This document shows, one piece after another, positions 4,996 through 60,543 of a stretch of 64,000 nt of DNA. The stretch's first letter is position 1, and each line of letters begins with the position of its first letter. Where the stretch lies: contig CAWUHX010000367.1 of the NCBI GenBank assembly GCA_963922205.1, positions 186,001 through 250,000 of the forward strand, written 5' to 3'. Below the pieces are notes generated by a model. It ran no database searches. It was not told the DNA's origin and saw nothing but the letters and a program-made list of their open reading frames with translations. A program made the translations under genes and the position numbers. The DNA comes from Romanomermis culicivorax (lineage: Eukaryota; Nematoda; Enoplea; Mermithida; Mermithidae).

Positions 4996-5043
4996 GATTG
5001 AAAAAATTCCTACGGTGCCCAAAGCAATATTGTAAACGGGAAT
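4990..5043 (+). promoter_or_regulatory. Candidate splice or trans-splice acceptor and 5' UTR of the receptor gene
   Basis: TTTTTAG at about 4989-4995 is followed by G and then 48 nt of leader before the ATG at 5044. An in-frame TGA at 4999-5001 rules out extending the coding region upstream. In nematodes such an acceptor close to the start often receives a spliced leader or joins a 5' UTR exon; which applies here cannot be told from sequence alone. Confidence 0.35.
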
Positions 5044-37195: not shown

Positions 37196-39210
37196 TTATC
37201 ACAACTAAGTTGAATCCTACCAGAAATCGTGTCTTTAAATGTGGTAGAGTTGAGTTTGTTCAGAAATTTCCACTTCTATGTGGCATACGGTTTATCAGGA
37301 AATCGTAAAAATATAGAAAGTTACTTGCTTACCACTTTTATTATTCACAAACATAATAGACCATGTACTATTGATTTTTCTCGGTTGTTCAAACATAATT
37401 GGTTATCTTCTTAGTCCACACCCCTTTTTTCGAATACTAATTCAATCGAATTCAAAATTTTGAGCTGTAGATTTTCCAAAATGCATCATAATCAGGGTTT
37501 TTTTTACCTACGAGTCACAAGCCAAGTGGCTTGTTGACCTAAAATTTTACAAGCTATTCCAAATTTTTACAAGCCAATTTTATAATATCAGTATACGTGA
37601 ATAAATTCCAATGCTAGGTTATTTTTTAAAGAAATGTATATATTGAGCATCACGGCAATCGATCAAAAAAGAGATGTCATCCAACATTTATTCAATAACA
37701 TTTTAGAGCCGTTAATTCATTAAAATTCAGGAAACATTTGAAATTTTTGAGTTTGATCGAAGTCTAATCTACAAGCATTGTGGAAAAACATTTTCCAGCA
37801 AACTATCGAAGAACATAATGACTTTGAATTACATGAGAAATTGACGTTTAAGTCTTTTATGATGACAAGTGAGAGCCCAAAAAAGCTAATAATCTTTCCT
37901 GCCCGGAACACCGGAAAAATTTTTTGGGTATTGACATTCTGCGATGCTGGAAAATCAATTTTCCAACCGCTTATTTGAAGAATTAGTTTCGAATTTTCTG
38001 TTCAAAAGTCGTAATTTCTGGAATTTTATGTTTGAAAAATTTTAAAACCATCAATGTATTCACACACTCTCATGAACTTGGCCGAAAAGATATGAGTAAG
38101 AAGAGTAGAAATTTCCGAAAACTACTTCCATGAAGCTTTTGGATTGATTTTACGTTAAGAAAGGAATAATCACTTCAAAAAGTTTACAGACTTGACGTAT
38201 TGATCTTTCTCAAAAAATGTGTCAAGGGAAAAATGTGAATCTTCATTAAATATCAAGATGAAATATTGAAGATTACCAATTAAAACATGAGATAATACGT
38301 TTAAGATGATTAAAACTATTAAAGATTAAATGATAAATGAAGGTAGACATGTTAGAAGCAGCGCCTGAGCTAGGAAATAAATAATAATGCTTATTTAAGT
38401 TATAACCGGCGCGAAGTGCCGGAAAATTTTGAGGTTATGACCTTCTAAAATGCACCAAAATGCATCTTTTCTGTATCCGATATGGATCAAACACATGACT
38501 TGTTGGACTAAAATTCTACAAGCCATTTTGTCAGTCCAACAAGCCATGGCTTGTAAAATGCTAAAAAAAACTATGATCATAATGAACCTTTCCGATTTTA
38601 AAATCCAAATTTTTTCACATTTCCAAATTTGTTACACCAAAAATACCGATTTTGCGAAAAAAACAGTGATACAAACCGGCCGAAAATCGGCCAAGCCATA
38701 ACAATACCGGCCAAAAAAAAAATCCGCCCAAAAACTGGCTGGTGCATCAAAAACCAGACAAAATTGGCCAGTTTCCAGCCAATCTGGTAACACTGATCAG
38801 AAAATACGACGCCGAAATTTTCAAAATTGGCGTAAGCATATGTAAAATCAGCCGACAAGATTTTTGCACTGCCTGCTTGCGCTAGCGGGTCAGGAAAGGC
38901 CTTTTGGAGGGAGTAAGTAGGTCGGTTGGTAACACTTCCATAAAAAGGCCAAGGAGGTCAAACAAAAAATCATGGTTTTTTTAGCTAAAACTTGTTGGAA
39001 ATGGCCTGTTTCTTGATGTTTTTCATCATTTGAATCAAATTCAGAACAACAATTTTCGAAAAATTTCCAACATTTAACAAATTTTGGAAAAACAGCCGCA
39101 TTTTGATTTAAACGTCATGATTCACTCCGTTTCAAATTTCGTGAAACAATGCACAGAAAAAGGATGCTCATTCTTGATGGAATCATGAAAACTTTTATTT
39201 GGGTTAGAAA
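37196..39210. other. Repeat-rich spacer left of LTR element 1
   Basis: This stretch contains several relics. The word ACAAGCCA and its inverse recur near 37520-37560 and 38500-38550. A stretch at 38400-38470 resembles 21115-21190 (both include GTGCTGGAAAATTTTGAG-like sequence). A block at about 38808-38870 resembles 51281-51355. No intact gene is supported. A weak arrestin-like frame on - at about 37720-37920 is noted elsewhere. Confidence 0.5.
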
Positions 39211-39840
39211 TGTAAGGTTTGTCAATTTTTAGGTCAATAGTAAATACAGGTTACTGTAGCTGAATAACCTGCAGATCGGACGGAATACTAAACGTTTTTG
39301 AGTTATTCTATCTTCTTCAGAATCGTCAACGAAAACGTCAAGGATGGGCGGCAACGGCGACGATTTAGGAAAACGCCAAGGTAATTTTGAAAGGAAAATC
39401 TTAGTCTCGTAATGAAAATATATTTCTTCCAGCTTCCAATGGTCCCAAAAGCCGGACGTAACAAATGACGATTTATCCAGCGACCCTACGACGATGGTGA
39501 AGAGCAGAGAAAGCAGGTAAGCCAAATTTATTAATAAAATAGTGAAGTGATTTTAACATACAAAACAAGCGTTTATATATAAAGAGAAAGACATAAAAAA
39601 AGACATAAAAACTAAGTATTGACGTCATAGTTTCATATAATCTTAGATCATAATCTTAATAAGCGTAGTGGTATAAAAATAAAAAAATTGGGTGACGTAA
39701 ATGAAGAATCTTGGCACGATGTCTACAGTAGGATTGGATAATGTAGGTTTGCCTGACATAAGCGCGATGGTGAAGGTATCGCTGTTTACTGTAGGGTGCT
39801 CAACGGCAATCATTATTGATTGATTGGCGGCGCTCCCACA
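39211..39840 (-). repeat. 3' LTR of element 1
   Basis: 630 bp, near-identical to 49413-50043. Reading leftward it begins TGTGGGAGCG and ends CCTTACA. A TATATAAA-type box (39574-39583) and nearby AATAAA signals on the minus strand fit promoter and polyadenylation functions of an LTR. A 98-codon minus frame (39525-39229, no ATG) is open in both LTR copies. Confidence 0.95.
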
Positions 39841-40217
39841 TTCTTCTGGTGCTGGTGAAAAGGCTGCCCCCAGCCTACATTTGGCACGATTCGGGATGGC
39901 GAATTGGCGCCAAATCGAGGGCGGATTTTTTGGGTAAGTGTTTTTATGGCGGTAAAAATTTGTTCTCTCTTTTTTTCCAATCCTCAGATTTTCTCGTTAT
40001 AATTTTCTTCGCTTCTCTTTTTTTGTGCCTTCCATCTTCTCCAATTTTACGTTCCGGTTTTTCTTTATGATTTTTCCTGTTCTGTTTTATAATTTTCCCA
40101 TTTCGCATAGATTTAAATTTTACAAATTTGTAAATAACCAAAATTGAGACAGTGTGTTCGGTTGTGTTTTTTTTCATATATATACGACGCAACAAATGGA
40201 CAAAAATCGACGAAAAT

Positions 40218-41090
40218 TCAACGAAGAAGGACGACGGATACGACGATATTTGGGACAAAGCAACGATGACGAATTAATCGATGGTGACAACGATTGTGGG
40301 ACAGCGATTTAGGGACGAGGGTGACGAACGATGCGGCTCTCGTAAGTATATTGTAAAATTTGGCCATTAGGGCATCAATTTGTTCGGGTGATAACCGGGG
40401 GTCGCGTCACAATTGGATTCGTAAGTGGACGCTTCGATGTTCGACTAATTCTTTGACGGCGGGCATCATTTCAGTATAATATGGCGGCATATAGCAGATG
40501 ATGAAAGCGGCCATCGATTCCATAAATGGCTCCCAGGGATAAATCGTAGGTTGAGATTGGGTTTGCGGTGAAATGATTTTAGGCTTCTCCGATGTTGACT
40601 TTATCCACAGATGATGTTGAGGGAACTTGGGAAGCAATCATAGGGCAACCGCGGGAGTCAGTGCGACTTTGATTAAGCTATTATTAATCGAATCGGGAAC
40701 ATTTGACAATGGAGGCAATATACCTTTGGTGTTAGCTACCATTAAACTGGAAGCTTTCAATCGTGTATTTTGCGTCGACGAGGGTATAATTGATTGCAAG
40801 AAAGATTCAGGGGTTGGACTGATCAAATAATGTTCATTCGTCGATACACGGGTGTGAGGAGGAATCATTGGGGCATTACCTCCTGAGGCATCGCTCATCG
40901 ATGGCGGCGGTTTCGGTTTAAAGATATTCGGCATTTCGGTCATTACTTGGACGAATTTTCGGTTTTCTTCGGCAACAAATGGGGCGGTTGTCGTAAAGCA
41001 TCGCCTAATCGAGAAGTTTTTGAATGTTTTTGACTGGCGATCAATTTTTCTATATGTCGCGTAGATTCGTGGGATACGGGAGGCGTAATT
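40218..41090 (-). pseudogene. Extra ORF between pol and the 3' LTR of element 1
   Basis: One minus-strand frame is open from 41090 to 40218, about 290 codons, apart from two TGA codons (40638-40640 and 40407-40409). The first ATGs lie at 40943 and just after. The peptide is Pro/Ser/Thr-rich at its start (PKPPPSMSD) and later contains LSPEQIDALMAKFYNIL, without a known domain. Its position is where retroviruses keep env or accessory genes. Since the glycoprotein lies elsewhere in this element, this would be an additional accessory product. The frame might also be chance; only one copy is available. Confidence 0.4.
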
Positions 41091-41511
41091 TCACTTAAAT
41101 TCTTCGTATAACGTTGGGTTCTTTAGATGAATGGTTGACAACAATAATTTGTCTATTTTAGCCGGCGCCTGAGATTCTTGTTTTATCGGCGGAAAATGAT
41201 TATTGTATTGACAGTCAAGTTTGTAGATGATGAAGTGATCATCGATCAGCAGCTATCATCGTTGTAATTTTCGCGAAAGGCATCTCTTCAGATGTAGAAA
41301 TTAGTTAATAACAAAGTATAAATGAGTACACAAATAAAATAACAATTTACCGAAAAAGAGTATATAGAAAAATACTTCGATGAAAGAATAAAAAATAGTA
41401 GGAGTACACAACTGAATAAAAGAATAAAAATGAGCCTCCTCAATAACTTATATAGAAAAATAATATGCATTATATACAAGTATTTATCTATTTTTCCTTT
41501 TTTTTCTTTCT

Positions 41512-44500
41512 TCACATGGACAAACATGTAGATAAGAGTTCTGGAGGCTGGTCTGATGATACGATCAAAGCTTGAGTCATGGACAAATGGTCGTCCGTTT
41601 TTTTCTTTTTCAACATATTGAAATGTATTTTTTCGTATGGGCGGCTCGGATTTTCTTTCAATTGCAGTAAATATGTCGGATGTTTCTTTTCAATGATGAT
41701 GTAGGGTCCTGCCCATGGAAAAGTAAATTTAGGTGAGTGTTTGGGCTTCACCACTGGACTATACTTAAAAACTTCTTCTCCTACTGTGAATTCTTCTCCA
41801 TGTTCTTTTTTATCGTATGCAATTTTCTGAGCGTTTTGTGCAATTTTTATGTTTTCTTTGGCAGATTGCCAGGCGTCCGACAAAAGACGTTGGATGTTGT
41901 CGCCATAATCGTCAACATCGATTCGATAGAAAGCCGGCGAGAAATGAAGAGCGGCCTCGATCGGCAAATTTGGATAGCGGCCAAAAAGAAGAAAAAACGG
42001 TGAGTACTTTGTTGATTTTTGTGTGGCCGTGTTATATGCAAAACATGCGTAGGGCAGATAGGAATCCCAATCGTTGTGTTTTTTATTGATGTACATCGAG
42101 ATAATTGTAGCCAACGTTTTATTGAATCTCTCCACTAGTCCGTCTGTTTGTGGGTGGTAGGGACTCGTGTTTATTTTTCTCGTTGCACATATTTCACAAA
42201 TGCGTAACATTAGATCAGATAAGAAATTCGTTCCTCTATCTGAAAGTAACGTTAATGGCGCACCAAAACGTAGCACTATTTCTGTCATAAAGGCTTGTGC
42301 AACTCTTTCTGTCGTAGTCTCTGGTAGAGCTACTGCCGTCACATACTTCGTTAAATATTCGCTGAACACAATGACGTATTTATTTCCATTTTCGCTCATA
42401 GGCAAAGGACCTAAAATATCCATAGCCACTCTGTCAAATGGACCTGTGACTGGTATAGGCATAAGAGCGGCGCGATTTCTTTTTGTGGATGTTTTTCTCA
42501 TACTGCAACTGATACAATTTAAGCAATTTTCTCCTACGTCGCGGTATACTGTAGGCCAGTGGTAGCGTAAGCGAATTTTTGCCAATGTTTTCATAAAACC
42601 AAAGTGTCCAGAAAAAACGTCATCATGACAGGCTTCTAAGATTTCTTCTTTCTTCAAAACTGGAACTTCTAATTTCAATTCGTTTTCATCTGCATCACCC
42701 AAATAATATAGAATTTCGTCTTTTATTGTAAATTGGGATGCTAGTGAAACAATTTTCTTGGCTTGCTTAAGATCTTCAGGCAGGTAGTCTGACTGTAAAT
42801 AAGCCAATAGTTGACCACAAAATTGATCACTTCTTTGTGCTTTACGAAAGTTGTTTATATTACTCGCGTTGAAGTCGTTTTCTTCCTTTTCTGTAACTAT
42901 AGTTCGAGTTTTCTCGAAAGTACTTCTTTCTATAGTTGGAAATTCTTCAAAATTCGCGTCTTCTTGAATTGGAAAGAAGTTATCAGGCGTTTTTGAGCAT
43001 GTAGTTTGAGTTTCATCTAGGCTAGTTCTTGCTATAGTCGAAGTTTTTTCGGAACCAGCTTTTGCTATAACAGAAATTGAGTCATTTGGCCTACTTTTAT
43101 AAGTTTGTGAGCATGTAATCGCGTTTATGTGAAATTTTATGCCTTTCTTGTCGTTTCCTCCACATACTGGATTTCTTGAAAGAGCGTCTGCATTTTTGTT
43201 GATTTTTCCGGCGCGATGTTTGATGTTAAGTTCTTGAAATTCTTGCAATGCTAGTCCCCATCTAGCTATACGACCGGAAGGGTTTGATTTTGAAAAAACG
43301 CTCTGTAAGGCTGAATGGTCCATAAAAACAGTGACCCGCTGCTGATACAAATAGTGACGAAAATATTTTACTGCCCAAACTACGGCTAGAGCTTCTGCTC
43401 CGTAATTGCGTAGTTTTTTTCTGCTTTCATCAAACTTCTGCTGGCATAGGCGATAGGTTTTTCTCCATCTTCTGTTTTTTGAGATAGAATGGCGCCTAAT
43501 CCTTCATTAGAAGCATCTGTATATAAGATAAAAGGTGCATGAAAATTCGAATGAATCAGCAGTGGCGCAGTCGTTAATTTTTCTTTCAACGCATCAAAAG
43601 CTTGTTGGCAGGCGTTCATCCATTCATATTTCTGGGCTTTCTTCAGTAGAAAATGTAGGGGATAGGTAATTTTTGCGAAATCTTGTATAAAACGTCTATA
43701 ATAGCTTGCTAAGCCCAAAAAGCTGCGTAATTGATCAATATTCGTTGGTGGTGTAAAGTTCTTCACGCTGCTGACTTTATTTTCATCTGGTTTTATTCCT
43801 TGCACTGAGATTTCATGTCCTAAGCAACTGGTATCTGCCAATAGCCCCAAGCTTGATCTAGGGTGGAAAATAGAGTAGCTCCTCGAACAGCATCAAAAAT
43901 ATCGTCAATTCTGGGTAATGGGTAACTATCCTTTTTGGTAACGGCATTTAGTTTTCTGTAATCGACGCAAAAACGAAATCCTCCCGTCTTCTTAGGCACT
44001 AAGACAACTGGGCTGGCCCATGGACTTTGGGACGGGGTAATAACTCCTTTGTCTAACATTTTCTGAACTTCTTCATTTATTTGTTCTTTTTGTTTATAGG
44101 GTGCTCGATACGGGATTTGTCGGACGGGGATGTTGTCACCGGTTTCGATTCGATGTTCGACCAGAGTGGTTCGTCCAAGATCGTGGTCGGTGGCGAACAA
44201 GGTCGAAAAGCGGGCCAGAAGACCGAAAAATTGGCGATGTTGGACATCAGTCAGGTGAGCTTCTTTTATATCACTCTGAAGTTCAGGATTTGCTAACAAA
44301 ATCTCGGCTTTTTCTTTTTCACTCTTTTCGCAAAAATCTTGAGATAAGCAAACTTTTTGATAGCAAGATGTAGGTTGATCAGAATACAAATTCTGATAGG
44401 CTCGAACTTTTCCAATTTTGATTCCTTGATAAAGGGTAATAGGGCTTTCCGTAGTGTTGAGAACGCTGACCGGAATAAGTCCATTGTTGGGTTTGACTAA

Positions 44501-45133
44501 ACTAGAGGCAACTTGTAGGTGAAAACGGAGTACAAATTTTGACAAAGGTTCAAAAATCAACGAATTCAATCGGGTGTAAGGCATCTCTAGCTGGGCATCC
44601 ACAAAATTAATAGTTCAGGGTGGAATGACTACTGTCTCGGCCAGAACCACTATTCCTCGGGTGGTATCGGGCAGGAAAATATTCGGATTTTTCATGGGTA
44701 CGGTGATTGAACCAAAATCGATACAGGCGGCTTTCCAATGTAGCCCGGTTTTTGCGAATCGTCGTAAGAAATCAGTTCCCAATAGCAAATCATAGGTGGA
44801 ATTCTTGACTACATGTACTCGAAGAAATTCGGGCGGTGACGACAAATTTTGCTCCACTGTAAGTGAGATTCTAACCCAACAAGAAGCCGTAACTTCTGCA
44901 GTTTGACTATTAAAAACCTTGTAACTTTTGATCATCGGGGGGAGTATTTGAAATCCTCTTTTTATCGCTAAGTTGTAACCAATAAGGGAGATATCCGAAC
45001 CACTGTCGACTAATGTAGTTATAGGTTCTTCTACGTCTTCGTTCAACCATACATCAATGGTAGGGCATCAATCTTGAGTCGGTTGGGTGCTGAGTCTTAT
45101 ACTGCAGTTCGAGGTCGAAGATTTGTCTTTTGA
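41512..45133 (-). pseudogene. pol: Pol of element 1: protease, RT (core deleted), RNase H, integrase
   Basis: Reads leftward. The aspartic protease has LVDSGSDISLI. After a TGA at 44615-44617 comes RT with SPWASPVVLVPKK and FRFCVDYRKLN. At about 43820-43850 the sequence jumps from YWQIPV directly to the GHEIS region, so the segment that should hold the YxDD catalytic motif is missing. RNase H follows (YTDASNEGLGAILSQ); a one-base loss near 43400 shifts frame before it ends. The last part (43350-41512) includes the integrase zinc module (HxxxxH, CxxC), catalytic D, D and E (MDILGP, SDRGTN, VERFNK) and a C-terminal GPY-type module (WAGPYII). Domain order RT-RNase H-integrase is that of Ty3/gypsy elements. 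Confidence 0.9.
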
Positions 45134-47320
45134 TTAAGTTTTGCGACTTAGCCAAGGCGAAAAAGCCTTCTTCAACATAGTAGAATAAGCTACTTCAGAT
45201 GACGTGGGATCTGCATGTTTGTTTGGTGTTTGTTCTTCATTTCCTCTTTCCGTTTCTTGCAAATCGGAAAATCGAACAATTGGTTCACGATCATTCTCTC
45301 GGTGGCCAAAACATTTCCCAATCCTTGCTCTGAGGTAATGACGAAAAACAAAATATCCTATCAAGAGTAAAACGATCAGGACCGCTAGGACAACGAGCAT
45401 ATTTAAAATGAGTTGTAGGGGGACAGAAATCAAATAATCGGTAGTAGTGACCAAATTCTTCACGCCTGTAGTGCTGATATGTTCCAACGAGTTGGTGGCT
45501 CCTTCCCTGATTTCTGCTACCATCTTCCCTGTACCAGCCAAAGTCTGATACACCACAGTCGGATCCAGCGATAGTTCTGCTGTATATCGTGTGAGTCGGT
45601 TCAAAGTGCTTTCAAGGATCGAAATTTTGGAAAAATAGCTTCTCATAAGGCCAAAAGTGTGTAAAACGCCAGCTTGTTGATCGTGAAAATAGGAAGGCGT
45701 ATTGAAAGTTTGCAACTTAGTTCTGCCTTGCCACTGGATACCGTAAGGGATCATTGCAACGTGCACTGGGCCAGTAGATGTTCTCCATCCAGTTCCTGTT
45801 TCGTGATAGATACCAACCACATGGTGATTGCAATCTACGACAGGCGATGTTCCAATCACATCCTTCGTTCCGGGAACCACAAAAAGTGTGTGATTTTGGA
45901 ATGAGATTGGCAAATAGGCGTAGCAGGTTTGGTTAACTTGATAGTCCCAAAATATATGATCTGGTACGATTCTTTCGCATTCCCAAACCATGAGAGCTTG
46001 ACCGGCAAAGGAAGCGATAATATCATTTCGCATAAGTAAAGCTCTGGCTCCTAGAGTCGGATCCAGTTTCAAAAGTTGCCAAATCATCACTAAACGTTGC
46101 TTTGAAGAATGACATAATTTGGTCCAAATAGTTTGGAAAATTCGACTTTCTTGCTCGATGATTTTGTCGTATAAAAACTGAAATTTTGAATTCATAGGAT
46201 CTTTTTCGAGTGTTCCAAGATTGATATTTGATGTTTCTCGATCAGCCAAAAGTTGATGAACATCCTCTTCGAACTGCAGAATAGGTCCTTGCTCAGTGGA
46301 ATAAGCATTTTGTAAATGACATGTAGAAATTGTCGCGGAGAGCTGAAAAGCTCCTTGAACTTCTTCCACTATCACATGATCTTGTAGGATATGTCCTGTG
46401 AAATTTCCTACTAGAGCCAATGGACAATAATTTTCGAAGGTGGTGGCATTCCAAATGATCGTTCCTCCAGCGTTCAAACATTGTCCAGCAACAGGAGGGC
46501 AACCACCAGTGTCTCCAAGATCACTAATAGTTACTTTGTGATCAACAGCTGCTATCGTCCCAACTTCCATGAGTAAATTCTGGACTGATCGACAAGTATC
46601 TTTGCAGCACCACTTGAATTCTACTTGCAACGCCTGATTTATGGTCCAAATTCCATGTTGAATTTCTGCTAGATTGTGTCCCATGTAACTTTTATCAGAC
46701 CAAACTTGTCTGCATAAACCTGGAGTGACAATATTCTGCAAAGTGGTGTCGGACACAATTCCTCGGGATCCAAAAACTCCTGTATTTGTACAAACGGTTC
46801 GGTTTTGTAAAACGCATTGAACGGCTATAATTTGATTCAAATGTCCATTGGTGGACCAAATGTGCAACTTTATTTCTCGTTTTTCAGCTTTGATCAGTGG
46901 CGGAGGGCGACATTGCGTCGTTTTCGGGACCATCAAGGCACGACCGCCTCGTGAAGCGCCACATTGGTAGAAAGGTTCGCCGAACGAATAGCGGACAACA
47001 AAAGAAAGTAACAATACGGCGGCGAACAAAAAATAAGAAGAAGGGAGTGAGACTAAATTTCTAAGAATTCGTTGGAAATGGTGTTGAGGAACTCTTCTTC
47101 TGTTACCTTTTCTGCTTCTTTGAACTGCTTCTGCTCTAAATTGAAATTGTAAATCTTCTAGCCTTCTTGGATCCATTCTTGAGTCAGTTTGAGCTGACTG
47201 ATGTCGCATGGAATCTTCCAGGGAGGTGACTTCGGGCCTCCAAACAATCCATGGTGCCGACTCGTTGATCCATCCTTCTGTCGTAAATTCCAAGGGTCCT
47301 TGTCTAGCGATCACTCCTCG
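45134..47320 (-). CDS. env: Membrane glycoprotein (env-like) located between gag and pol
   Basis: A frame of about 728 codons is open from just after the gag stop to TAA at 45134-45136, in the same frame as gag and pol. A basic leader of about 85 residues is followed by a hydrophobic signal-like segment (about 88-109). A large Cys-rich ectodomain with several NxS/T sites follows, then a second strong hydrophobic segment (about 631-654) and a cytoplasmic tail of about 70 residues. This is the plan of a type I viral fusion/attachment glycoprotein. The tract GTIIWNATTFENYCPL with surrounding cysteines loosely resembles rhabdovirus- or chuvirus-type G proteins. I regard that as a hint only; it does not look like the short env of classical gypsy. 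Role in cell-to-cell transfer is inferred. Confidence 0.75.
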   Translation of the reverse strand, partial: RGVIARQGPLEFTTEGWINESAPWIVWRPEVTSLEDSMRHQSAQTDSRMDPRRLEDLQFQFRAEAVQRSRKGNRRRVPQHHFQRILRNLVSLPSSYFLFAAVLLLSFVVRYSFGEPFYQCGASRGGRALMVPKTTQCRPPPLIKAEKREIKLHIWSTNGHLNQIIAVQCVLQNRTVCTNTGVFGSRGIVSDTTLQNIVTPGLCRQVWSDKSYMGHNLAEIQHGIWTINQALQVEFKWCCKDTCRSVQNLLMEVGTIAAVDHKVTISDLGDTGGCPPVAGQCLNAGGTIIWNATTFENYCPLALVGNFTGHILQDHVIVEEVQGAFQLSATISTCHLQNAYSTEQGPILQFEEDVHQLLADRETSNINLGTLEKDPMNSKFQFLYDKIIEQESRIFQTIWTKLCHSSKQRLVMIWQLLKLDPTLGARALLMRNDIIASFAGQALMVWECERIVPDHIFWDYQVNQTCYAYLPISFQNHTLFVVPGTKDVIGTSPVVDCNHHVVGIYHETGTGWRTSTGPVHVAMIPYGIQWQGRTKLQTFNTPSYFHDQQAGVLHTFGLMRSYFSKISILESTLNRLTRYTAELSLDPTVVYQTLAGTGKMVAEIREGATNSLEHISTTGVKNLVTTTDYLISVPLQLILNMLVVLAVLIVLLLIGYFVFRHYLRARIGKCFGHRENDREPIVRFSDLQETERGNEEQTPNKHADPTSSEVAYSTMLKKAFSPWLSRKT

Positions 47321-49239
47321 TCATGACTGGCTTCCAAATTCTTGCATATGCATACAATTCAAAATATTACATAAATTACAAATACTGGCTGCAGCAGGCC
47401 CATTCAAAATTCTAAAATAAACTTCACCCATGAGGCGGCTTCCAGAGGGACGGTCGGAATTAGAACCTCCAGTCTGAGCCGTATTCATGAAAACATTAAC
47501 TGATTCGACTTGCCCAGAATTTTCAAATCGCTGACGGCGCCATCTATCTTCATAATAGTCGAAATCAGAAGTTTCATCAAAATCAGAGGTTTCGTCTGAA
47601 CCATTTTCTAAATAACCATTTTCTAAATGTTCTGGGGCTTCATTATCTAAATAATTGCCAGTATACCCATGGGAGGCAATAGTGGGATTATCGCTAATTT
47701 CTTCAGATCCTGTCCCACTACTCACCAATGTGGAGTATTCGGTTCCAAAATAAAATTCTTCATTATATCGGGCCATAAAAACATGTGCCTGAGGCCTCAC
47801 ATTGGAATTTTCTGTTGGCAGATCGAAATCATCGCAATTCCAGGGATCGGACTGTTCTGCGATGGTGTCAGGATTAAATACTGACACGTTGGGCCCATTA
47901 GCCTCGGCAAGACAAAGCTGACTATTGACTCCTCGGGTTCCAGAAAGGGCATCTCCTGGACTCCTAGGGTTCGAAACGCCTCGGGCTGGCATTTGTACTC
48001 GGGGCGATCCACCACGCCACGTGCTACGCGGGGAACTCGAAAATCTGGAATCTTGATTTCGTTCGAGCATGGGGCAAGTAGAAGAATAATGCCCACTTCT
48101 ACCACATCTAAAACAAGAAACGGTACCATCTGAAGACCTTCCTGACAGGCGGCCGCGGTTAAAGTTGGTATTTATTGCGCGATTTGGGTGACCTGCCATC
48201 CTGTTGGGCTCTTGGGGACCGTTCGATTGAATCTGAAAATCTCTCGCGTTATTCCTAGACCAAAAACGATTTTCTTGCCGTGGCCATCTGTTGAAATTAG
48301 TATTTTGATTCGTCCTTTGTTCGTGTCTTCTTTCCGAATTTGAATTTCCAGCTAGGTTGACAGCACTCAACTGTTGCACTAAATTTGTCAGCTGACTGAC
48401 AGAATTCGTCAAAACTTGAAATGAAGGGTTATTTTCACTGTGATATTGTTTTTCTCGTAATTCTTGTTTTTCAGCTTCAGCAACGGCGGCCTCGAATGAA
48501 TCCGGTTTGGCGTTTTGGACCCAACGACGAATGTCAGGTATTAGTCGATTTATAAAATGATTTTTAATAATTATATCAGGTTCTCCGGCTCCGTTCCAGG
48601 TTGGAAAAGCTCGTTTGGCTAAACGACGGACGTCAGCGGCGAAAACGGCGACGGGTTCTCCCAACAACTGCGTTCTGGCGACTAATTGCTCGTATTTGAC
48701 GTCGATTTGGCGATTATCCGGAAACTTGGCTAGGTAAGCACCAGTCCATGCATCCCAGTCAGCCAAAGGAGGTTGTCTTGCTTCTAATTCTCCAAAATAA
48801 TTGAGTGCAGCGCCTCGTAAATAATTTGCTAGCAGGGCCGTTTTTCTACTTAGGGCTGTAGCACCTGCCAAAATCGCTAATCTCGAAAATTTTCTTTCCC
48901 ATTCTGACCAATTTAAATCGTTGGGGTCGCCAGCAAATGGGGATAGATCGCCTAGACCGGTGGGGATCGTTGGGCGGGTTTCATACAGTTCTGTAACTCG
49001 AGCCACTGTATTTCGTAACAAATCATTGATTTCTTGCATGGCCATTACGTCTCTATTTCCAACTAAAACTTGATCTTCTTGATTCGCCAAAATTTGTAAA
49101 TTTTCTTCTTCTAAATTTTCTTCTGGTGGTACACGTTCAAATAATGGTCGTCCACTTCTAGTTCGTCGATGTTTTGTAGGATTCTGGCGAGCGCGGGCGA
49201 TTACGTTATTAAAAATCGAAAAAAGTGAATTTTCTTCTT
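47321..49239 (-). CDS. gag: Gag of element 1
   Basis: Structural nucleocapsid polyprotein. The frame is open from about 49239 to TGA at 47321-47323. No ATG appears in the first part; a TTG near 49090 or a splice acceptor upstream may set the start, so the N-terminus is uncertain. A retrotransposon gag core (WSEWERKFSRLA, LRGAALNYF, and a region of repeated basic/acidic helices) lies about 60-215 residues after 49090. It is followed by an Asn/Arg-rich linker and one CCHC zinc knuckle (CFRCGRSGHYSSTC, about residue 326). The remainder is Ser/Glu-rich. The env-like frame follows directly without frame change. Confidence 0.85.
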
Positions 49240-49385
49240 CAGCCGTTCTTCAAGAAAAATCGTCAAGCTCGAAAAATTCGAAAAACGCCAAGTAAGTTGC
49301 CAAATAAAATCCTCGGCCTTCGTGCTTCTTTATTTCTTCTTTATTTTTAGGCTTCTTCAAGGTCAATTCGAATCCAAAGATTGCA

Positions 49386-49410
49386 GTCGATGTCCTGCCA
49401 CGAATCGCCA
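49386..49410 (-). other. Primer-binding site of element 1
   Basis: Immediately inside the 5' LTR end (…CCTTACA) and after a 2-nt AG spacer, the minus strand reads TGGCGATTCGTGGCAGGAC, beginning with the TGG that pairs with the CCA end of a tRNA. The complementary tRNA 3' end would be that of an Arg-type or other tRNA; the exact species needs a tRNA set. Confidence 0.65.
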
Positions 49411-49412
49411 CT

Positions 49413-50043
49413 TGTAAGGTTTGTCAATTTTTAGGTCAATGGTAAATACAGGTTACTGTAGCTGAATAACCTGCAGATCGGACGGAATACTAAACGTTTT
49501 TGAGTTATTCTATCTTCTTCAGAATCGTCAACGAAAACGTCAAGGATGGGCAGCAACGGCGACGATTTAGGAAAACGCCAAGGTAATTTTGAAAGGAAAA
49601 TCTTAGTCTCGTAATGAAAATATATTTCTTCCAGCTTCCAATGGTCCCAAAAGCCGGACAGAACAAATGACGATTTATCCAGCGACCCTACGACGATGGT
49701 GAAGAGCAGAGAAAGCAGGTAAGCCAAATTTATTAATAAAATAGTGAAGTGATTTTAACATACAAAACAAGCGTTTATATATAAAGAGAAAGACATAAAA
49801 AAAGACATAAAAACTAAGTATTGACGTCATAGTTTCATATAATCTTAGATCATAATCTTAATAAGCGTAGTCGTATAAAAATAAAAAAAATTGGGTGCCT
49901 TAAACGAAGAATCTTGGCACGATGTCTACAGTAGGATTGGATAACGTAGGTTTGCCTGACATAAGCGCGATGGTGAAGGTATCGCTGTTTACTGTAGGTT
50001 GCTCAAGGGCAATCATTATTGATTGATTGGCGGCGCTCCCACA
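49413..50043 (-). repeat. 5' LTR of element 1
   Basis: 631 bp and the partner of 39211-39840. Differences are concentrated around 49870-50010 (TGGTGC/TGCCTT-type changes) with one extra A in an A-run. TG...CA termini and flanking GAAA support insertion by an integrase. Confidence 0.95.
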
Positions 50044-50194
50044 GAAACATACATGTCATTGGGGAGGAAGTGCTAGTGGAACTTCTTCTCCCCCCCCCCA
50101 GAAATCGTCGGCCATACGGCTAGCCATTAGACGACCCCCCATAGTTGTCTTAGGGACCCCCATACTCTTGCTTGGAAAAATACTGGAAACCAAT

Positions 50195-53780: not shown

Positions 53781-53798
53781 TGGTGGCTTTTAACTCCT
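53781..53798 (+). other. Putative primer-binding site of element 2
   Basis: TGGTGGCTTTTAACTCCT begins with the TGG expected of a tRNA primer site. It is preceded by CA and a 2-nt AG spacer, the same spacing as in element 1, which places the 3' end of a 5' LTR near 53778. The matching 3' LTR is not in the window. Confidence 0.45.
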
Positions 53799-53802
53799 CA
53801 TC

Positions 53803-56381
53803 ATGGAACTTCGTAGTCACACTAGGAGAAAAGAAAATCCTCCAGGTTTCTACAGAAAGTTAGCAGGATTTAAAATGCCTAACGAAATGATACCGAGAGG
53901 TAATACTTTCAATAAATCACCACCCAGAGTGGCGAGTGCTGGGAATCTTGTAAATTTGGGAGACGGAGATCAGCAACAGCATGCTGCTCCAGACCCAGTG
54001 ATCCCAGATCAAACTCCTGCAAGGGTTCAACCATTGCAACAAAATGCAATGCATTTTACGCCCCAAGATGTGGGTGTACCAATTGATCGCCCACCAGCAA
54101 TTGCCATCGATCCACAAGAGGTAGGACTGGTGAACCCAAACCCAGATGCCGATGGACCGCGGCCGCGAAATTGGAAAAGGTCACCGCCAAAGGTTGAGTT
54201 AGCAGGACCAAAGAGGGACGTTATTACGCCCGAATTTCGACCAAATTTGGAAGAAAGGGACCCCGAAATCGATCGACGATTAGAGAGGATCCCGCAAGAT
54301 CAAGAGCAATTCCGCCCGCAGGAAAGAGCTCTCGAAATGTCCACTCAAGAGTTGGCGATGTAGCTATGCGAATTGAATGGGACCGTCGAAGCTTTGTTTG
54401 ACATAATCCCGAATGCCACCACCGAGGACAATAAAAGGGAAGCCGACAGTCGCTGACAGGAGCCGGATAGACAGGTTAGATTATGTAATAGGGGTGCAGA
54501 AAGAGACAACCGTCTCTATGCTGAAATGAATGCAGGCGCAGGGCCTAGTAATAGGCCTGAAGTTGATGAAGGGCAAAGACTCAATTTTGAGCCCAAAAGT
54601 TGGAGAGGTCCAGCTAGAGATCTTCGATTCGAGGGAGCTGAGCAATGGGCAGACCTCAGGAATCCAAATCAGATAGCTTCGCAGCATCCAACTTTAACAA
54701 GAGTGGTCTATGATGGTAGAAGAAATATAGTTGATCCAAATACTCTTAGACCAGATCAACTGGCATGTTTCCCATATAGGGATTATAGGTTTGACAGAGA
54801 CAACATACCATCAAATCAAGGAGGTGTACCACCTCAATGAGATCCAAATAGAGTTATGCTGCAATCTCTTCTGATATTGATCCAGTGTTAACAGCAGCTT
54901 ATGATCAGAGAGAAATGCCAACAAATAATTTGGCACAAGAGATTGTTGTTAGGAATATTGTTAAAGGTGTGTTACCCAAACTTTTAGATGAGGGTATGGT
55001 AAATCAGCAGGTGCTTAGTTTCTTAACAGCACTTGAAGGGGAATTCTGTAGGGATACACCCGAATCAGTCAAATATGAGGCACTGCTGAGGCTTTCTAAA
55101 GGTAGACCAAAGGCTGTTGCAGGAGACAACATGACCTATAGGGAGGCCAGGAGAGCCATTATAAATGTCTTTGCACCTGAGTGTAACCTGGAAATGTTGA
55201 CCAGGGAGTTATTTGAGATCCAACAAAGACCCAATGAACAGGCCGTAGAGTTTTAAAAAGGGTCAGTATTCTAGTGGAACTAGTAAAGGGTGATTTAGAC
55301 TATCAGTCAAAACAAAGACTGATTATTGACACCTTTATATATAAGAGTGATCCCGCGTTTCAGTCTGAACTGAAAAATTCGAAGCATACCTTTAGAACTT
55401 GGTATGACTTAGCAGTAGAGGTTCATGACATTGAATGCAGGTACAGAAATGCCTTTCAGAGATGCGGACCTAATGGTACACAACAGGATCCTATTGTTAT
55501 TAATGAAGTAGGTATGCCTAGTAGGCATGATCCTGAAATTGCCGTAGTTGCTAGGAATCAGTCAGAAGAATATCAACAAGGCCAGAGACAAAGGTTTCGG
55601 CAACCATATCAAACTGTAGGTAATCAGGTACCGGCCCAAATCCAAAGGTCAAGGAGTGATTCTTGTGAAATAGAAGAGATTCCAGTTCGGGAAGCCCCTA
55701 GGGCTCAGACCGAAAAAGGTAAGAAAGATTGCCTTCTATTAAAAATTTCTAAAGAGATGGTACAACTGGTCGAAAGGTTCGACCAGCTTCAGCAAAAGGT
55801 TGATAATAATCAAATGGAAAATCAGTCTGATGTGGCCATACCCAGCACCAGTCAGGGAGGTCAAGGTTCCCGAGATCCGACAAAGCCATGGTGTGAGTTC
55901 CACAAGAACATAACACATAATACTGCAGACTGCAGGACATTGAAAGTGTTGTCCAAGCGCAGGAGCAGAGGTAGAGCCAGCTTCCCTAGCTTCAACATGG
56001 GAGGCTTCAACAGTTTTGCTAGAGGTAACTATAGAGGTAGAGGAGGTTACCCAAATGCCAACTTCAACAGCAGAGGCAGAAGTGTGTATAATATAAGCTA
56101 TTAAGGTTATCAGGATAGCCATGAGAGTTACCAACAGAATTCCGATTACAATGAATTTCTGGAATTCAGAAGGCAAAAGGAGCTGCAGAAGCAGTTCCAA
56201 CAGATGCAGCAATACCAACAGCAAGCTGCATTACAGCATCCTCAGCCATCTCAGGCTATTACGGGTCCGACTCAGACTCTTCAACAGGGTCAATTCACAA
56301 ATCAGCAGCCCCAGAAGGATTATTCAAGTGTAATGGTTGCAAGGCAATCAAAAATGAATCCTTTGGGCGAAGTAAATTAGA
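53803..56381 (+). pseudogene. gag: Gag of element 2 with stops and frameshifts
   Basis: ATG at 53803. A basic, Pro-rich N-terminus runs to TAG at 54361-54363, continues in frame past another stop near 54457, and meets TGA at 54838-54840. A shift near 54860 moves to the gag core (KYEALLRLSKGRPK) ending TAA at 55254. A further shift leads to 55274-56104, with a zinc-knuckle variant C-x2-H-x4-H-x4-C (CEFHKNITHNTADC), an RGG/Gly-rich segment and then, past TAA at 56102-56104, a Gln-rich tail to TAG at 56379-56381. The Cys-to-His change in the knuckle is known from other gypsy gags. Confidence 0.75.
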
Positions 56382-56383
56382 GA

Positions 56384-59300
56384 GTGAATTGCCCTAATGT
56401 GGTATTAGGTAGTATTGTTCAAATGAATGCTATTGCGCCACAATGTGTAGTACCATCCGTACAAGTAGTAAAGAGAGGCACACTAGCTAGCCCTCAGGAA
56501 CAACATTTGCTGGATACGTACCCCCAAACAGCCCCACTCCACATTGAGGTTGTTATAGGAGGTCGTAAGACATTGGCTCTAATTGACACAGGAGCTCAGT
56601 GTGCTGTTATGTCGGCTAAGTTTCTGAAAGAAACTTTGGGCCCGCAATACACTGAATATCCGAGGATATTAAATGTTACTGTAGCCAACGGTAAAACAGT
56701 CCAAGCCCATGGGTATATCCAATTTAGGATGGATACATTGTGTGGACAGTTCCCCGTTAAAGCAATTGTAATTCCTGAAGCAGGTGAAAACATTATAGTG
56801 GGAACAGACTTTTTGGCTCATCCTCAGGTAGGAGCCATAATAGATTTCAGGAATAGGACCATGACGCTCAACAACCGTCAGCAGCGGATATACGTGACGC
56901 CGGACCAGCCCCAAACAAATTGTGGAGAGGTCATGACCAGGAGCACCAGGGAATCTACGACGAGCGCCCCCGACCAGTATCAGCCAAAGATTTGTCTGCT
57001 AAAGGTTTCGGTGCCAGTGGTGAGTGTGAATCCCATCTACTTACCTAGTGGTACTGATATACTTCTGAAAGCAAAGCTTTGGGATAAGGTAGGTGAAAAT
57101 CGTCTGAACGGAATCATAATAGAGTCTGAAGAAAATGAAGAAAGGTTCCACATTGATAGTACTATAGTAGATGGTACAAAAGATGATTTTGTAGTTATGG
57201 TATCCAACAACACAGGATCAGGATGCCATTTGAAAAGAAATCAAATAATTGGCCATACTAATTCTGTGTTATGTGATACCGATAACCAAGACCAACTAAA
57301 GGGGAAGATAGTTGAGGATTTGGAGAAGCGGCAAACCTGTGCAGTCCAAGCTAGACCTGATTCCACTCAATTGGATGAGAAGGAATTCAAGGAAGCTCTG
57401 TACAGTATGCTGGCTAAGTCCAACATACCATCTGAACAATTGGAACAAGCTTTATGAGGTCTCGCAAAATATAGAGACGTGTTCAGCTTGCCCAATGATC
57501 CTCCAACTACTACACCCTACTTGACCTGTAAAATAAATACAGGGGATGCAGCACCTGTGGCAAAAAGGTACCACAGGACTGCTATTAGTTTACGGCTACA
57601 TGTTCGTGAGCATGTCCAAGATATGCTCAAAAAGGGTGTAATAGAACCATCAAAGTCGCCTTGGGCAGCTCCGTTATTCCTTGTAGGTAAAAAGGATGGT
57701 ACCAAGCGACCAGTAGTGGACTTTAGGGGTATAAATGACGTTACCAAGGATGATAAGTATCCCATTCCTAGAATGGATGACTATCTAGACTGTTTAGGTA
57801 AAGCGAAGTTTTATACAACCGTAGATCTCAAATCAAGATATTGGCAAGTGCCAATGGAAGGAGAAAGCAAGGAGAAAATTGCTTTCATATGCCAGGAAGG
57901 GCTTTACCAATTTAAAGTCATGCCCTTTGGCCTAAAAAATGTGCCAGCAGAGTTCCAGCACATGATTGAATGAGTTTTGCACCCCTATGTTTGGAAAATC
58001 TGTCTAGTATATATAGACGATATAATAGTATTCTCAAATACGTTTGAGGAACATTTAGTTAATTTAGAGCTAGTCCTGCAAGCTCTAAGGAAGGCTCATT
58101 TGACCTTGAAGCTGGAGAAGTGTGAATTTCTCCCAGAGAGAGTTCATTTTTAGGACATATCTTAAATTTGGATGGAGTTTCCCCAGATCCGAAAAAGGTC
58201 AAAGCTATTAATGATTTCCCATTCCCAGAGTTTAAACGTAAGCTGCAAAGGTTTTTAGGAATGTTGCAGTGGTGTACAAAGTTCATACCAGGGTTGGCTA
58301 AACAGGCTGAACCATTGTATAAATTAACTGGGAAGAAATGTGTTTGGGAAATCACGGAGGTTCACCATCAGGCTTTTAGGAGCCTAAAAGAAGCACTATT
58401 GTCAGTGCCTTTTCTAAGATATCCGGTTTTGGACGGGTCTGCGGACTTTGTCCTTCAGACAGATGCCAGCGGAACGGCACTAGGAGCAGTTCTCTACCAG
58501 GAGACCAAGTCTGACCGCTGGGTAATTGCGTATAACAGCAGAATTTTAAAAGTGGACGAGAAGATGTGGTCAGCCACAGAAAGGGAGTGCTTGGCAATAG
58601 TGTATGGTTTAAAGTTATACAAGCACTACTTAGTGGGTCATAAGGTGATCATAAGAACTGAACACAAGCCTTTACTTTCTATGAAGGTCAACGCCATGAC
58701 CAATGGTAAATTGAAGAGATGGTACTTGTCCATCTCTCAGTTCAACCATAAACTAGAGTATGTGCCTGGAAAACAAAATGCCATGGCAGACTTTTTGTCT
58801 ACGATGAATGAACCAGATGATCAAGCAGAAAAGATACCGCCAAAATGGGAACACTTGTTCTCAGAGGATAAACGAGAGTCTGAAAATCTGAAAGATCTAG
58901 AAGCACAGCTTATTGAGAAAAAGCATCTCAATTTGGTGAAGAGATTCAGAATTCTGACAGATCGGAATCCTGAAGACCATTATATTCAGAGCCAAAAAGT
59001 AAGAAAAATCAGAGGATTGACACTAATCCGGGATTCACCCAAATTTATCCAAGAGATTCTGGGGGTGATCCAGAATCAAGCTCGCCTGCAGACTTGGTAA
59101 ATGCTGTAGGAGGAGCATGGTGAGAGAAGCGGAAAAAGATAATCAGGCTCAGGTCCAGCCTGATGGCAATAAGGGCAAAGAAATGGTAAGTAGGGGAAAC
59201 CAGGAAAAAAGTAAGGAAGAGTTACCTGGTTATACCTGGAAAAAGAACCAGAATTTACTTTGGCAAACCCCAAAGAAACTGAGTTGCCAAAAGGGCTCAT

Positions 59301-60543
59301 TAGAGATGGTCTCATGGCCCTCTTGCAGAGAAAGGATGAGGTACTAAAACCTTATTTTGATAGATTGGGTCCAAATTGGACAACCAAGTATCATAGTGGA
59401 TTTTATATCCAGAATGAAGTGTTATACCGCAAAGCCGGACAGGGATTGGATGATCAAGTGGTCGTCCCATCCTGCCTAAGGGACAATACTTTGCACCAGT
59501 ACCACGGTGCCGTAATGATGACTCATCAGGGGTTCAAAAGGACCCTTGCTATGATTAAGAAATGGTTCTGGTGGCCTGGAATTGAAAAGGATGTCAGGCA
59601 CTGGATAAAGTTTTGTCCAGTGTGTCAAATGGCTAATCAGGGAAACACTGAAATTCCCCCACTGATACCTATTCTTCCATAAGGTCCCTTCAACATAGTA
59701 TCAGTGGATATCGTGAGTATTTCTCCACTTAGTGAGAAGAGACCGTATGTCATAGTCTTTCAGGACTATTTTACAAAGTGGGTTGAAGCTGAACTGATCC
59801 CAGATCAGTCAGCTAGCACCGTTGTAGATACTTTTCTACAAGCTGTTGTATTTAGACACGGGACTCCACGGAGATTACTCAGTGACAGAGGAGGTTGTTT
59901 TACCTCAGATCTGATGAAAGCAGTCTGCAAGTTATTGGAGTGTCAAAAAATTTATACAACAGCCTACCATCTACAAGGAAATGGTATGGTAGAAAGGTTT
60001 AACCACACACTCATTAAGCAGCTCAGAAAAGTGGCCATTGAGGAAAAAGATAATTGGCCAAGATATTTGAGAGCCTTGGTGTTTGCCTATAATGCCACAC
60101 CACATGCAGCAATGGGGCAATCCCCATTTTCATTGCTTAGAGGTCATGAGGCAACTTTGGGGTTAAACTTATCGAAAGCATATGATATTGTAATGCCGGA
60201 CAGCAATGCAGAGGCATATAAATTTGTGTTGACAAATCACTTAGTCAACCTTTACGAGGATATAGCTAAAAATATTCAGAGTGCTGCCGAAAAACCGAAG
60301 AAATACCTCGATAAAAAGTCCAAACAAAATGGGTTCAAGGAAAAGGACTGGGTTCTGCTCAAAGTAGATAAGCAGAAAAAATTAGGACTACCATGGTCCG
60401 GTCCGTTCATAGTTACCGACATTTTGCGAGAAGCAGAGAATGTTGTCACCATTGTGCATTGGGACAACCTGCTAAATCGCCAAGTTGTTTCAATCAGCAG
60501 GTTGAAACATTTTTGTTATGAGACCACTAGGGTCTTTCCATGA
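56384..60543 (+). pseudogene. pol: Pol of element 2: protease, RT, RNase H, integrase
   Basis: Protease ALIDTGAQCAVM at about residue 65 of the first frame (56384-57457). RT (57479-58150) has SPWAAPLFLVGKKDG, VVDFRGIND and an intact YIDD catalytic motif at about 58008, with a TGA at 57974-57976. A one-base loss in a T run near 58150 shifts frame. RNase H (58440-58700) starts QTDASGTALGAVL. Stops and a shift occur between 59098 and 59260. Integrase (59260-60543) has the HxxxH/CxxC module, catalytic D, D and E (SVDIVSI, SDRGGC, VERFNH) and the GPF-type C-terminus (WSGPFIV), with one TAA at 59680-59682. Catalytic residues are present but the copy cannot make one polyprotein without bypassing the stops. 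Confidence 0.88.

What the first reader, a model, noticed from the sequence alone, without database searches (positions are those of the whole stretch)
39211..50043. LTR element with gag-env-pol order in one reading frame
In retroviruses and known errantiviruses env follows pol. Here a 720-residue membrane glycoprotein frame lies between gag and protease. Seen directly: gag end (47321), glycoprotein (47320-45134) and protease/RT (45133-43820) are all in the same frame. The element is bounded by matching LTRs with a GAAA duplication, so this is not two chance neighbours. A retroelement expressing Gag-Env-Pol in this order would be a new genome architecture.
Basis: partly seen in the sequence, partly recalled or inferred. 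Interest (0 to 1): 0.88.

Follow-up and report, generated by a model that had tools for sequence, protein, structure and literature searches.

The report
Retroelement with envelope before polymerase
A parasitic nematode's genome carries many retrovirus-like elements in which the membrane-fusion envelope gene sits between the capsid gene and the protease-polymerase genes, in one long reading frame, instead of at the end, which points to an unusual way of building such particles.

Summary
The element (minus strand, LTRs 49413-50043 and 39211-39840, GAAA duplication) has gag, a chuvirus-like class III-type glycoprotein (PF24664, E 1.3e-18), then protease-RT-RNaseH-integrase of Ty3/gypsy type. This copy is decayed. 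Other copies in the same genome (size and scaffold count match Romanomermis culicivorax v2) have one open frame of about 2,660 codons holding gag, env and protease matches. I read eight lineages (A-H; proteases as little as 35% identical to the window's); all eight have the order gag-env-protease. Seven (all but C) gave at least one locus stop-free from gag C-terminal sequence through env into protease and RT. No gag-protease pair among 38 was closer than 2,071 nt. Env is under purifying selection (dN/dS mostly 0.04-0.19), much like PR-RT. Lineage G has a second protease: Gag-PR-Env-PR-RT. A metagenomic protein of unknown origin has env-PR-RT-RNaseH in one frame. Best reading: one Gag-Env-Pol polyprotein with an internal signal peptide and one membrane anchor, so Gag and Pol stay cytosolic. 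Order and frame are shown; processing and infectivity are inferred. My searches of one paper library found no report of this order.

The parts
49413..50043 (-). 5' LTR (631 nt)
39211..39840 (-). 3' LTR (630 nt), 98.3% identical to the 5' LTR
50044..50047 (.). GAAA target-site duplication, 5' side
39207..39210 (.). GAAA target-site duplication, 3' side
49390..49412 (-). primer-binding-site-like stretch just inside the 5' LTR; tRNA not assigned
   Evidence: sequence only
47321..49249 (-). gag frame; first ATG in frame at about 49045 (by eye); closed by a stop at the gag/env boundary in this copy
48071..48118 (-). CCHC zinc knuckle of gag
   Evidence: PF00098
45134..47320 (-). env frame, 728 codons, chuvirus-like fusion glycoprotein
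   Evidence: (PF24664 E 1.3e-18)
46997..47053 (-). internal signal-peptide-like hydrophobic segment of env
   Evidence: hydropathy
45356..45412 (-). transmembrane-like segment of env
   Evidence: hydropathy
44615..45067 (-). aspartic protease (DSG)
43820..44614 (-). reverse transcriptase, N-terminal part
43386..43892 (-). RT C-terminal part and start of RNase H, in a shifted frame
41512..43503 (-). RNase H and integrase (H2C2, rve), again in another frame

Best explanation
An env-bearing Ty3/gypsy-type (Metaviridae-like) retroelement whose gene order is LTR-gag-env-pol-LTR, and whose unbroken relatives encode one Gag-Env-Pol polyprotein. Proposed working: the ribosome makes Gag first, in the cytosol. 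An internal signal peptide at the start of the env part sends the chuvirus-like ectodomain into the ER. The single transmembrane segment stops transfer, and protease, RT, RNase H and integrase are made on the cytosolic side. Signal peptidase frees the ectodomain's N-terminus, and the element's own protease separates Gag, the Env tail and Pol. Gag and Pol would thus be made tethered to the membrane that carries Env, in equal amounts. Shown: order, frame, open frames, conservation, two hydrophobic segments, selection, recent insertions. Inferred: translation as one chain, the cleavages, particle formation and infectivity.
For: Open frames of 2,664, 2,662 (subfamily A) and 2,665 codons (B) with no stop in the env match, and of 2,571 and 2,703 in two D rows; the gag and protease matches of the A and B rows lie in frames of the same length, the protease matches of the D rows too. 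Stop-free for 500 codons on each side of env: L002, L004, L009 (3 of 30) and L031, L034, L035 (3 of 12). Lineages E-H, one locus each: gag C-terminal sequence (E, F, H) or first protease (G), then env PF24664 and protease in one stop-free frame, open on into RT with YLDD, no break at the borders; for G the gag part lies in the adjoining stretch L055, same frame. Gag-to-protease gap 2,250-2,265 nt in most A copies, never under 2,071 in 38 rows. dN/dS 0.04-0.12 (env ectodomain) and 0.08-0.10 (PR-RT); 0.07-0.19 and 0.07 for undecayed A/B pairs. Two hydrophobic segments 523-554 residues apart in every lineage. Env and RT trees agree in their main groups. P0003: env-PR-RT-RNaseH in one 1,424-aa frame. 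Two inspected insertions have 4-bp duplications and LTRs identical where compared.
Against: No RNA, ribosome-profiling or protein data. In the window copy the first in-frame ATG lies 69 codons into the gag frame (by eye). Most loci carry stops: 27 of 30 A loci and 9 of 12 diverged loci have at least one in the stretch fetched, and no stop-free C locus was seen. A stop at the gag/env boundary occurs in 4 of 30 A loci, the window copy included. Synonymous divergence dips over the zinc knuckle and adjacent linker, and a GTRAGT donor-like motif lies upstream of env in A (3 of 4 loci), B, C and E, though not in D, F or G; an RNA-level device is possible. The near-identical D pair L034/L035 gives uninformative dN/dS (0.29 env, 1.19 PR piece). 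The env structure prediction was poor (mean pLDDT 48), so class III membership rests on sequence profiles.
Confidence: 0.66

Rival explanations
1. The order gag-env-pol is real, but Env is made from a spliced subgenomic RNA or by internal initiation, and Gag-Pol from an RNA with env spliced out; the shared frame is a by-product.
For: Errantiviral env RNA is spliced (recalled). Donor-like GTRAGT about 700-760 nt before the env start in A (L002, L004, L009; not L026), B, C and E; synonymous constraint over the zinc knuckle and linker.
Against: No TTTYAG acceptor shared by all lineages lies between gag and the signal peptide or just before protease; D, F and G lack the donor motif upstream of env. 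Eight lineages keep both junctions in one frame; the linkers measured are about 300-384 codons (A, B, D, E) and 78-104 codons (A-E). None of 38 gag-protease rows has gag joined to protease, as retrotransposed env-less RNA would. Weaker splice sites were not excluded.
Confidence: 0.22
2. A fixed stop between gag and env (as in this copy) is used by read-through, so Gag is the main product and Gag-Env-Pol the rare one.
For: The window copy and three other A loci have a stop there, at the same or the next codon (4 of 30).
Against: 26 of 30 A loci have none there, three A loci are stop-free throughout, and B, D and E-H loci are open there.
Confidence: 0.04
3. The glycoprotein is an inert or domesticated membrane anchor for Gag and Pol, not a working fusion protein; the elements move only inside the cell.
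For: No infection data; fusion loops were not identified here.
Against: Ectodomain under purifying selection; 16-18 cysteines and 5-8 N-glycosylation motifs in the one or two loci examined per lineage.
Confidence: 0.15
4. Chance neighbours, nested insertion or assembly artefact.
For: The window copy is broken.
Against: Same order and spacing at dozens of loci, eight lineages, UniRef R. culicivorax proteins P0001 (named a gag-domain protein, runs into env) and P0002 (env, then a tail that resembles RT by eye), and a metagenomic protein.
Confidence: 0.01

Closest known systems
Ty3/gypsy LTR retrotransposons (Metaviridae)
   Same: PR-RT-RNaseH-integrase order, RT of lineage E closest in the PDB to Ty3 RT (4ol8, E 3.5e-95), 4-bp duplications, TG...CA LTRs; in lineage G a Ty3_capsid match
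   Different: an envelope gene lies between the Gag zinc knuckle and protease
Errantiviruses (gypsy-type insect endogenous retroviruses)
   Same: Ty3/gypsy pol with an envelope gene
   Different: there env follows pol (recalled) and likely derives from baculovirus (stated in PMC12440569, passage seen); here it precedes protease and is chuvirus-like
Anakin (BEL/Pao element with a chuvirus glycoprotein, mosquitoes)
   Same: captured chuvirus-type glycoprotein
   Different: BEL/Pao pol. PMC7642597 (passages seen) places the env-like proteins of Roo, Tas and Cer-7 downstream of the polyprotein; I did not see Anakin's own gene order. P0004 begins with what looks to me like a BEL/Pao integrase tail (recalled, untested), which would be that env-last order
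Jingchuvirales glycoprotein EVEs in Nematoda
   Same: glycoproteins of the same type in nematode genomes
   Different: PMC10084718 (Results section read) reports two, flanked by simple repeats and low-complexity sequence; no gag-env-pol element is described there
Alphavirus and flavivirus polyproteins (works like, not related)
   Same: cytosolic capsid part, internal signal peptide, membrane glycoprotein, then more proteins in one chain (recalled)
   Different: positive-strand RNA viruses; no reverse transcription
Troyka and other single-frame Gag-Pol LTR elements
   Same: Gag and Pol made as one protein (PMC12440569, passages seen)
   Different: no envelope protein

Membership tests
Ty3/gypsy (Metaviridae) | RT of Ty3 type | tested here: met
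   best PDB match Ty3 RT, E 3.5e-95, with lineage E; window copy RVT_1 1.1e-6, just below Pfam's cut-off on a partial RT, RNaseH above it
Ty3/gypsy (Metaviridae) | pol order PR-RT-RNaseH-IN | tested here: met
   window copy
Ty3/gypsy (Metaviridae) | LTRs with TG...CA and a short (4-6 bp) duplication | tested here: met
   GAAA; GATC at an A copy; ATAT at a B copy
Errantivirus | env downstream of integrase | tested here: not met
   env lies between gag and protease; the longest frame wholly after integrase in the window has no Pfam match at E 0.01
Errantivirus | baculovirus F-type envelope | tested here: not met
   PF24664 Monjiviricetes_fusion and weak gB; no baculovirus F family among the matches up to E 1
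Retroviridae | order gag-pro-pol-env | tested here: not met
Belpaoviridae / Anakin | BEL/Pao pol | tested here: not met
   Ty3-type RT; no BEL/Pao family among the Pfam matches
Chuvirus-type glycoproteins | sequence-profile match | tested here: met
   PF24664 above cut-off in window env and lineages E-H
Chuvirus-type glycoproteins | class III fold | tested here: inconclusive
   AlphaFold2 model of low confidence; no fold search was run on it
Enveloped infectious retrovirus | enveloped particles that infect | not testable with these tools

The most novel reading that the evidence does not exclude
An old, diverse lineage of enveloped reverse-transcribing viruses with a genome order not yet described: Gag-Env-Pol made as one membrane-threaded polyprotein. 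Particles would form on ER-type membranes with Gag, Env and Pol made in equal numbers. The lineage reaches beyond this nematode, and it includes a branch (Gag-PR-Env-PR-RT) that may preserve a trace of how env was captured between two protease copies.
Probability: 0.5. Interest if true: 0.9.

Novelty: new variant of a known kind. Interest (0 to 1): 0.83.

Why it matters
Among the retroviruses and env-bearing LTR elements I know of (recalled), env comes last and is expressed apart from Gag-Pol. A lineage that places Env inside the Gag-Pol frame breaks that rule, makes a testable prediction (a membrane-spanning Gag-Env-Pol precursor), and offers a case for asking how Gag, Env and Pol amounts are set when one frame makes all three. 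It also adds a Ty3/gypsy element with a chuvirus-type glycoprotein in a nematode, kept under selection, with recently inserted copies and a dual-protease branch that bears on how the capture happened.

Tried and rejected
Chance, nesting and assembly artefact: rejected by recurrence. Env-less relatives: of 69 gag rows typed from the 82 matches (13 short rows left out), 38 have a protease row within 9 kb downstream, none closer than 2,071 nt; two of the 38 are pieces of one C252 element. Of 78 protease rows typed from the 151 matches (the first 77 listed and one later row; the rest left out), 59 have an env row within 6 kb upstream, one of them 3.5 kb away; of the other 19, two have a gag row 2.4-2.7 kb upstream and 17 cannot be judged, because one search scored only 61 of 4,017 candidates. 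Four protease loci outside those 78 and outside the env list (C180, C202, C52, C278) were fetched, and all four have env.

Structure prediction of env: poor, so no fold search was run. Viral-contig scan with the env alignment: 47 pattern matches, no relative. Protein searches: window env, 2 R. culicivorax proteins; env region of L050, P0003 and P0004; env alignment, the same 2 R. culicivorax proteins. No chuvirus glycoprotein was fetched, so the donor of env was not placed on a tree. The first RT tree included a piece of the window's other Ty3-type element, whose very long branch left A, B and E unresolved; I dropped that row and rebuilt. The tool warned of long branches (P0003, P0004). Protease tree to root the duplicated proteases: unresolved.

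Splicing: the GTRAGT/TTTYAG scan found no acceptor shared by all lineages; weaker sites were not excluded. Literature: searches gave 0 papers and 67 gave 1 irrelevant one; others (5 of 6 listed; 9 of 9; 15 of 17; 10 of 1,374) were seen as titles and starts of abstracts. Passages were seen in PMC12440569 (also its abstract), PMC7642597, PMC10879605, PMC9963324, PMC5177903 and PMC5408684; passages and the Results section in PMC10084718. Nothing describing gag-env-pol was seen; the library holds no preprints and few subscription papers.

Full report
WHAT IS IN THE WINDOW. The element lies on the minus strand between LTRs 49413-50043 and 39211-39840. The LTRs share 619 of 630 aligned bases, begin with TG and end with CA, and are flanked by GAAA on both sides. 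In one frame follow gag (49249-47321), a 728-codon glycoprotein (47320-45134), a 22-codon piece, protease (45067-44615) and the start of RT (44614-43820), each closed by a stop; RT/RNaseH and RNaseH/integrase are frameshifted (43892-43386, 43503-41512). Pfam finds a zinc knuckle in gag, Monjiviricetes_fusion (PF24664, 1.3e-18) with weak herpes gB similarity in the glycoprotein, RNase H and integrase above cut-off, and protease and partial RT matches that are significant but below Pfam's cut-offs. A PDB sequence search gives only weak gB matches for the glycoprotein (best E 0.005). This copy is decayed.

HOST. The assembly has 359,112,060 bases in 595 contigs. The published R. culicivorax v2 assembly has 359.1 Mb in 595 scaffolds (PMC10879605, passage seen). 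The two proteins found with window env are R. culicivorax proteins in UniRef. I take the host to be this mosquito-parasitic mermithid nematode.

OTHER COPIES. An env search of the genome gave 63 matches, with 61 of 4,017 candidates scored. Two subfamily-A rows (C100, C95) and one B row (C34) sit in open frames of 2,664, 2,662 and 2,665 codons without a stop in the env match; two D rows sit in frames of 2,571 and 2,703. The gag and protease searches place the A and B copies' matches in frames of those same lengths. In 30 fetched A loci (L001 is the window copy), three (L002, L004, L009) are stop-free across 500 codons on each side of env. A stop at the gag/env boundary, at the window copy's codon or the next, is in 4 of 30; the 22-codon env/PR piece is stop-free in 27 of 30; 24 of 30 are free at both. 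Of 12 diverged loci, L031 (B), L034 and L035 (D) are stop-free throughout. C (L033) has the same order but one stop in the gag-env linker, and no stop-free C locus was seen. From gag end to protease start the gap is 2,250-2,265 nt in most A copies, and never below 2,071 in 38 rows.

DEEPER LINEAGES. Four more families were found through their proteases (54% and 35-38% identical to the window's): E (L047), F (L048), G (L049) and H (L050), one env locus read for each. In each, env (PF24664 above cut-off) precedes protease in one stop-free frame of about 1,200 codons, and the next 1.6 kb is open into RT with YLDD, with the frame continuous at the border. E has one and F and H three CCHC motifs upstream of env. 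In G the gag part, with Ty3_capsid and three CCHC motifs, lies in an adjoining open stretch in the same frame. G carries a first protease before env and a second after it, 38% identical to each other, both with DTGA. The first protease is present in all three G copies inspected (C52, C84, C33); env between the two was read only in C52. PR2 is closer to F and H (45-49%) than PR1 is (39-40%). This fits a duplication older than the F/G/H split or a faster PR1; the tree does not resolve it.

OUTSIDE THIS GENOME. A protein search with the env part of H found P0003, 1,424 aa from a metagenome contig of 6,278 bases: env, protease, RT and RNase H in one frame, 40% identical over the env query. Its organism is unknown, and whether gag precedes env is not seen. 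P0004 (739 aa) starts with what looks like a BEL/Pao integrase tail (recalled, untested) followed by env, as in an env-last element.

SELECTION AND HISTORY. In one search, dN/dS is 0.04-0.12 for the env ectodomain (five pairs with unsaturated dS) and 0.08-0.10 for PR-RT (four pairs); linkers are looser (0.08-0.77). In one search, undecayed A/B pairs give 0.07-0.19 for env and 0.07 for PR-RT; the decayed window copy gives 0.15 and 0.29; the near-identical pair L034/L035 is uninformative (0.29 and 1.19). Synonymous sites are saturated between distant lineages. Env and RT trees give the same main groups, {A,B}, {C,D}, E against {F,G,H,P0003}, but differ inside the second (one outlier row dropped from the RT tree). 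This fits one env carried with pol since before these lineages split. At an A copy the LTRs are identical over the 565 nt compared, with GATC on both sides. At a B copy they match at 809 of 810 aligned positions; the one difference lies past the CACA end that I take as the LTR boundary; ATAT lies on both sides. So insertions are recent.

HOW IT PROBABLY WORKS. In the stretch read for each lineage there are exactly two hydrophobic segments above threshold, 523-554 residues apart, enclosing 16-18 cysteines and 5-8 N-glycosylation motifs, with basic residues after the second. The plain reading is an internal signal peptide and one anchor, leaving Gag and Pol on the cytosolic side. Two linkers, 301-384 codons (A, B, D, E) and 78-104 codons (A-E), stay in frame. 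At 3 stops in 64 codons, about 380 random codons would be open with a chance near 1e-8; seven lineages were seen stop-free across both junctions. I therefore favour one Gag-Env-Pol polyprotein, threaded through the membrane as in alphaviruses or flaviviruses (analogy, recalled). Splicing or internal initiation remains the main rival (donor-like motifs, synonymous dip).

NOVELTY. By RT, pol order, LTRs and duplications it is Ty3/gypsy; by order of genes it fits none of the env-bearing groups considered. My searches of the paper library found no such order (calls named in Tried and rejected). I file it as a new variant of a known kind, with a genome architecture that I believe is undescribed.

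Noticed in passing
L044 (C117:622900-628400), L045 (C61:389500-394000): A deletion derivative: gag codons 1-73 joined to about 321-642, then the first 547 nt of env fused in frame to RNase H-integrase, lacking capsid, most of env, protease and most of RT. It looks amplified: 26 of the 69 gag rows typed cover only residues from about 311-325 to 642 and have no env or protease row nearby; 11 of these have a listed row for residues up to 73 next to them. Only two copies were read.
   Followed up: partly
L044:4731-5396; L063:289-954: Both derivative copies read carry an RNase D-like 3'-5' exonuclease frame (PF01612, 7.1e-10) after integrase, 88% identical to each other; no match in the window element's 3' region. 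PMC5408684 (passages seen) describes such exonucleases as ORF3 of bdelloid rotifer LTR elements.
   Followed up: partly
L049, L055-L057 (C52, C84, C33): Lineage G has two proteases flanking env (Gag-PR-Env-PR-RT), both with DTGA motifs.
   Followed up: partly
window 47797-48171 and loci codons 240-420: Synonymous difference between subfamilies A and B (L002, L031) falls to 0.27-0.36 over the zinc knuckle and first linker part, against 0.45-0.90 in the other windows. A +1-frame ORF of 119-124 codons overlaps it in five of six A loci checked (96 in L009) and one of 69 in B; none of 60 or more was found there in C. A cis RNA element or an overlapping gene; unexplained.
   Followed up: partly
L006, L010, L016, L019: Four A loci share nearly the same run of upstream stops in gag (L016 lacks one of ten), as if a gag-frameshifted lineage had been copied, perhaps with help from intact copies.
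   Followed up: no
window 53794-60543 (+): Pieces of a second Ty3/gypsy-type element; three pieces tested match protease, RT and integrase and no glycoprotein.
   Followed up: no
window 5002-5544 (+) and 18078-18151 (+): A host rhodopsin-family receptor exon (PF00001) and a tRNA-Thr gene.
   Followed up: no
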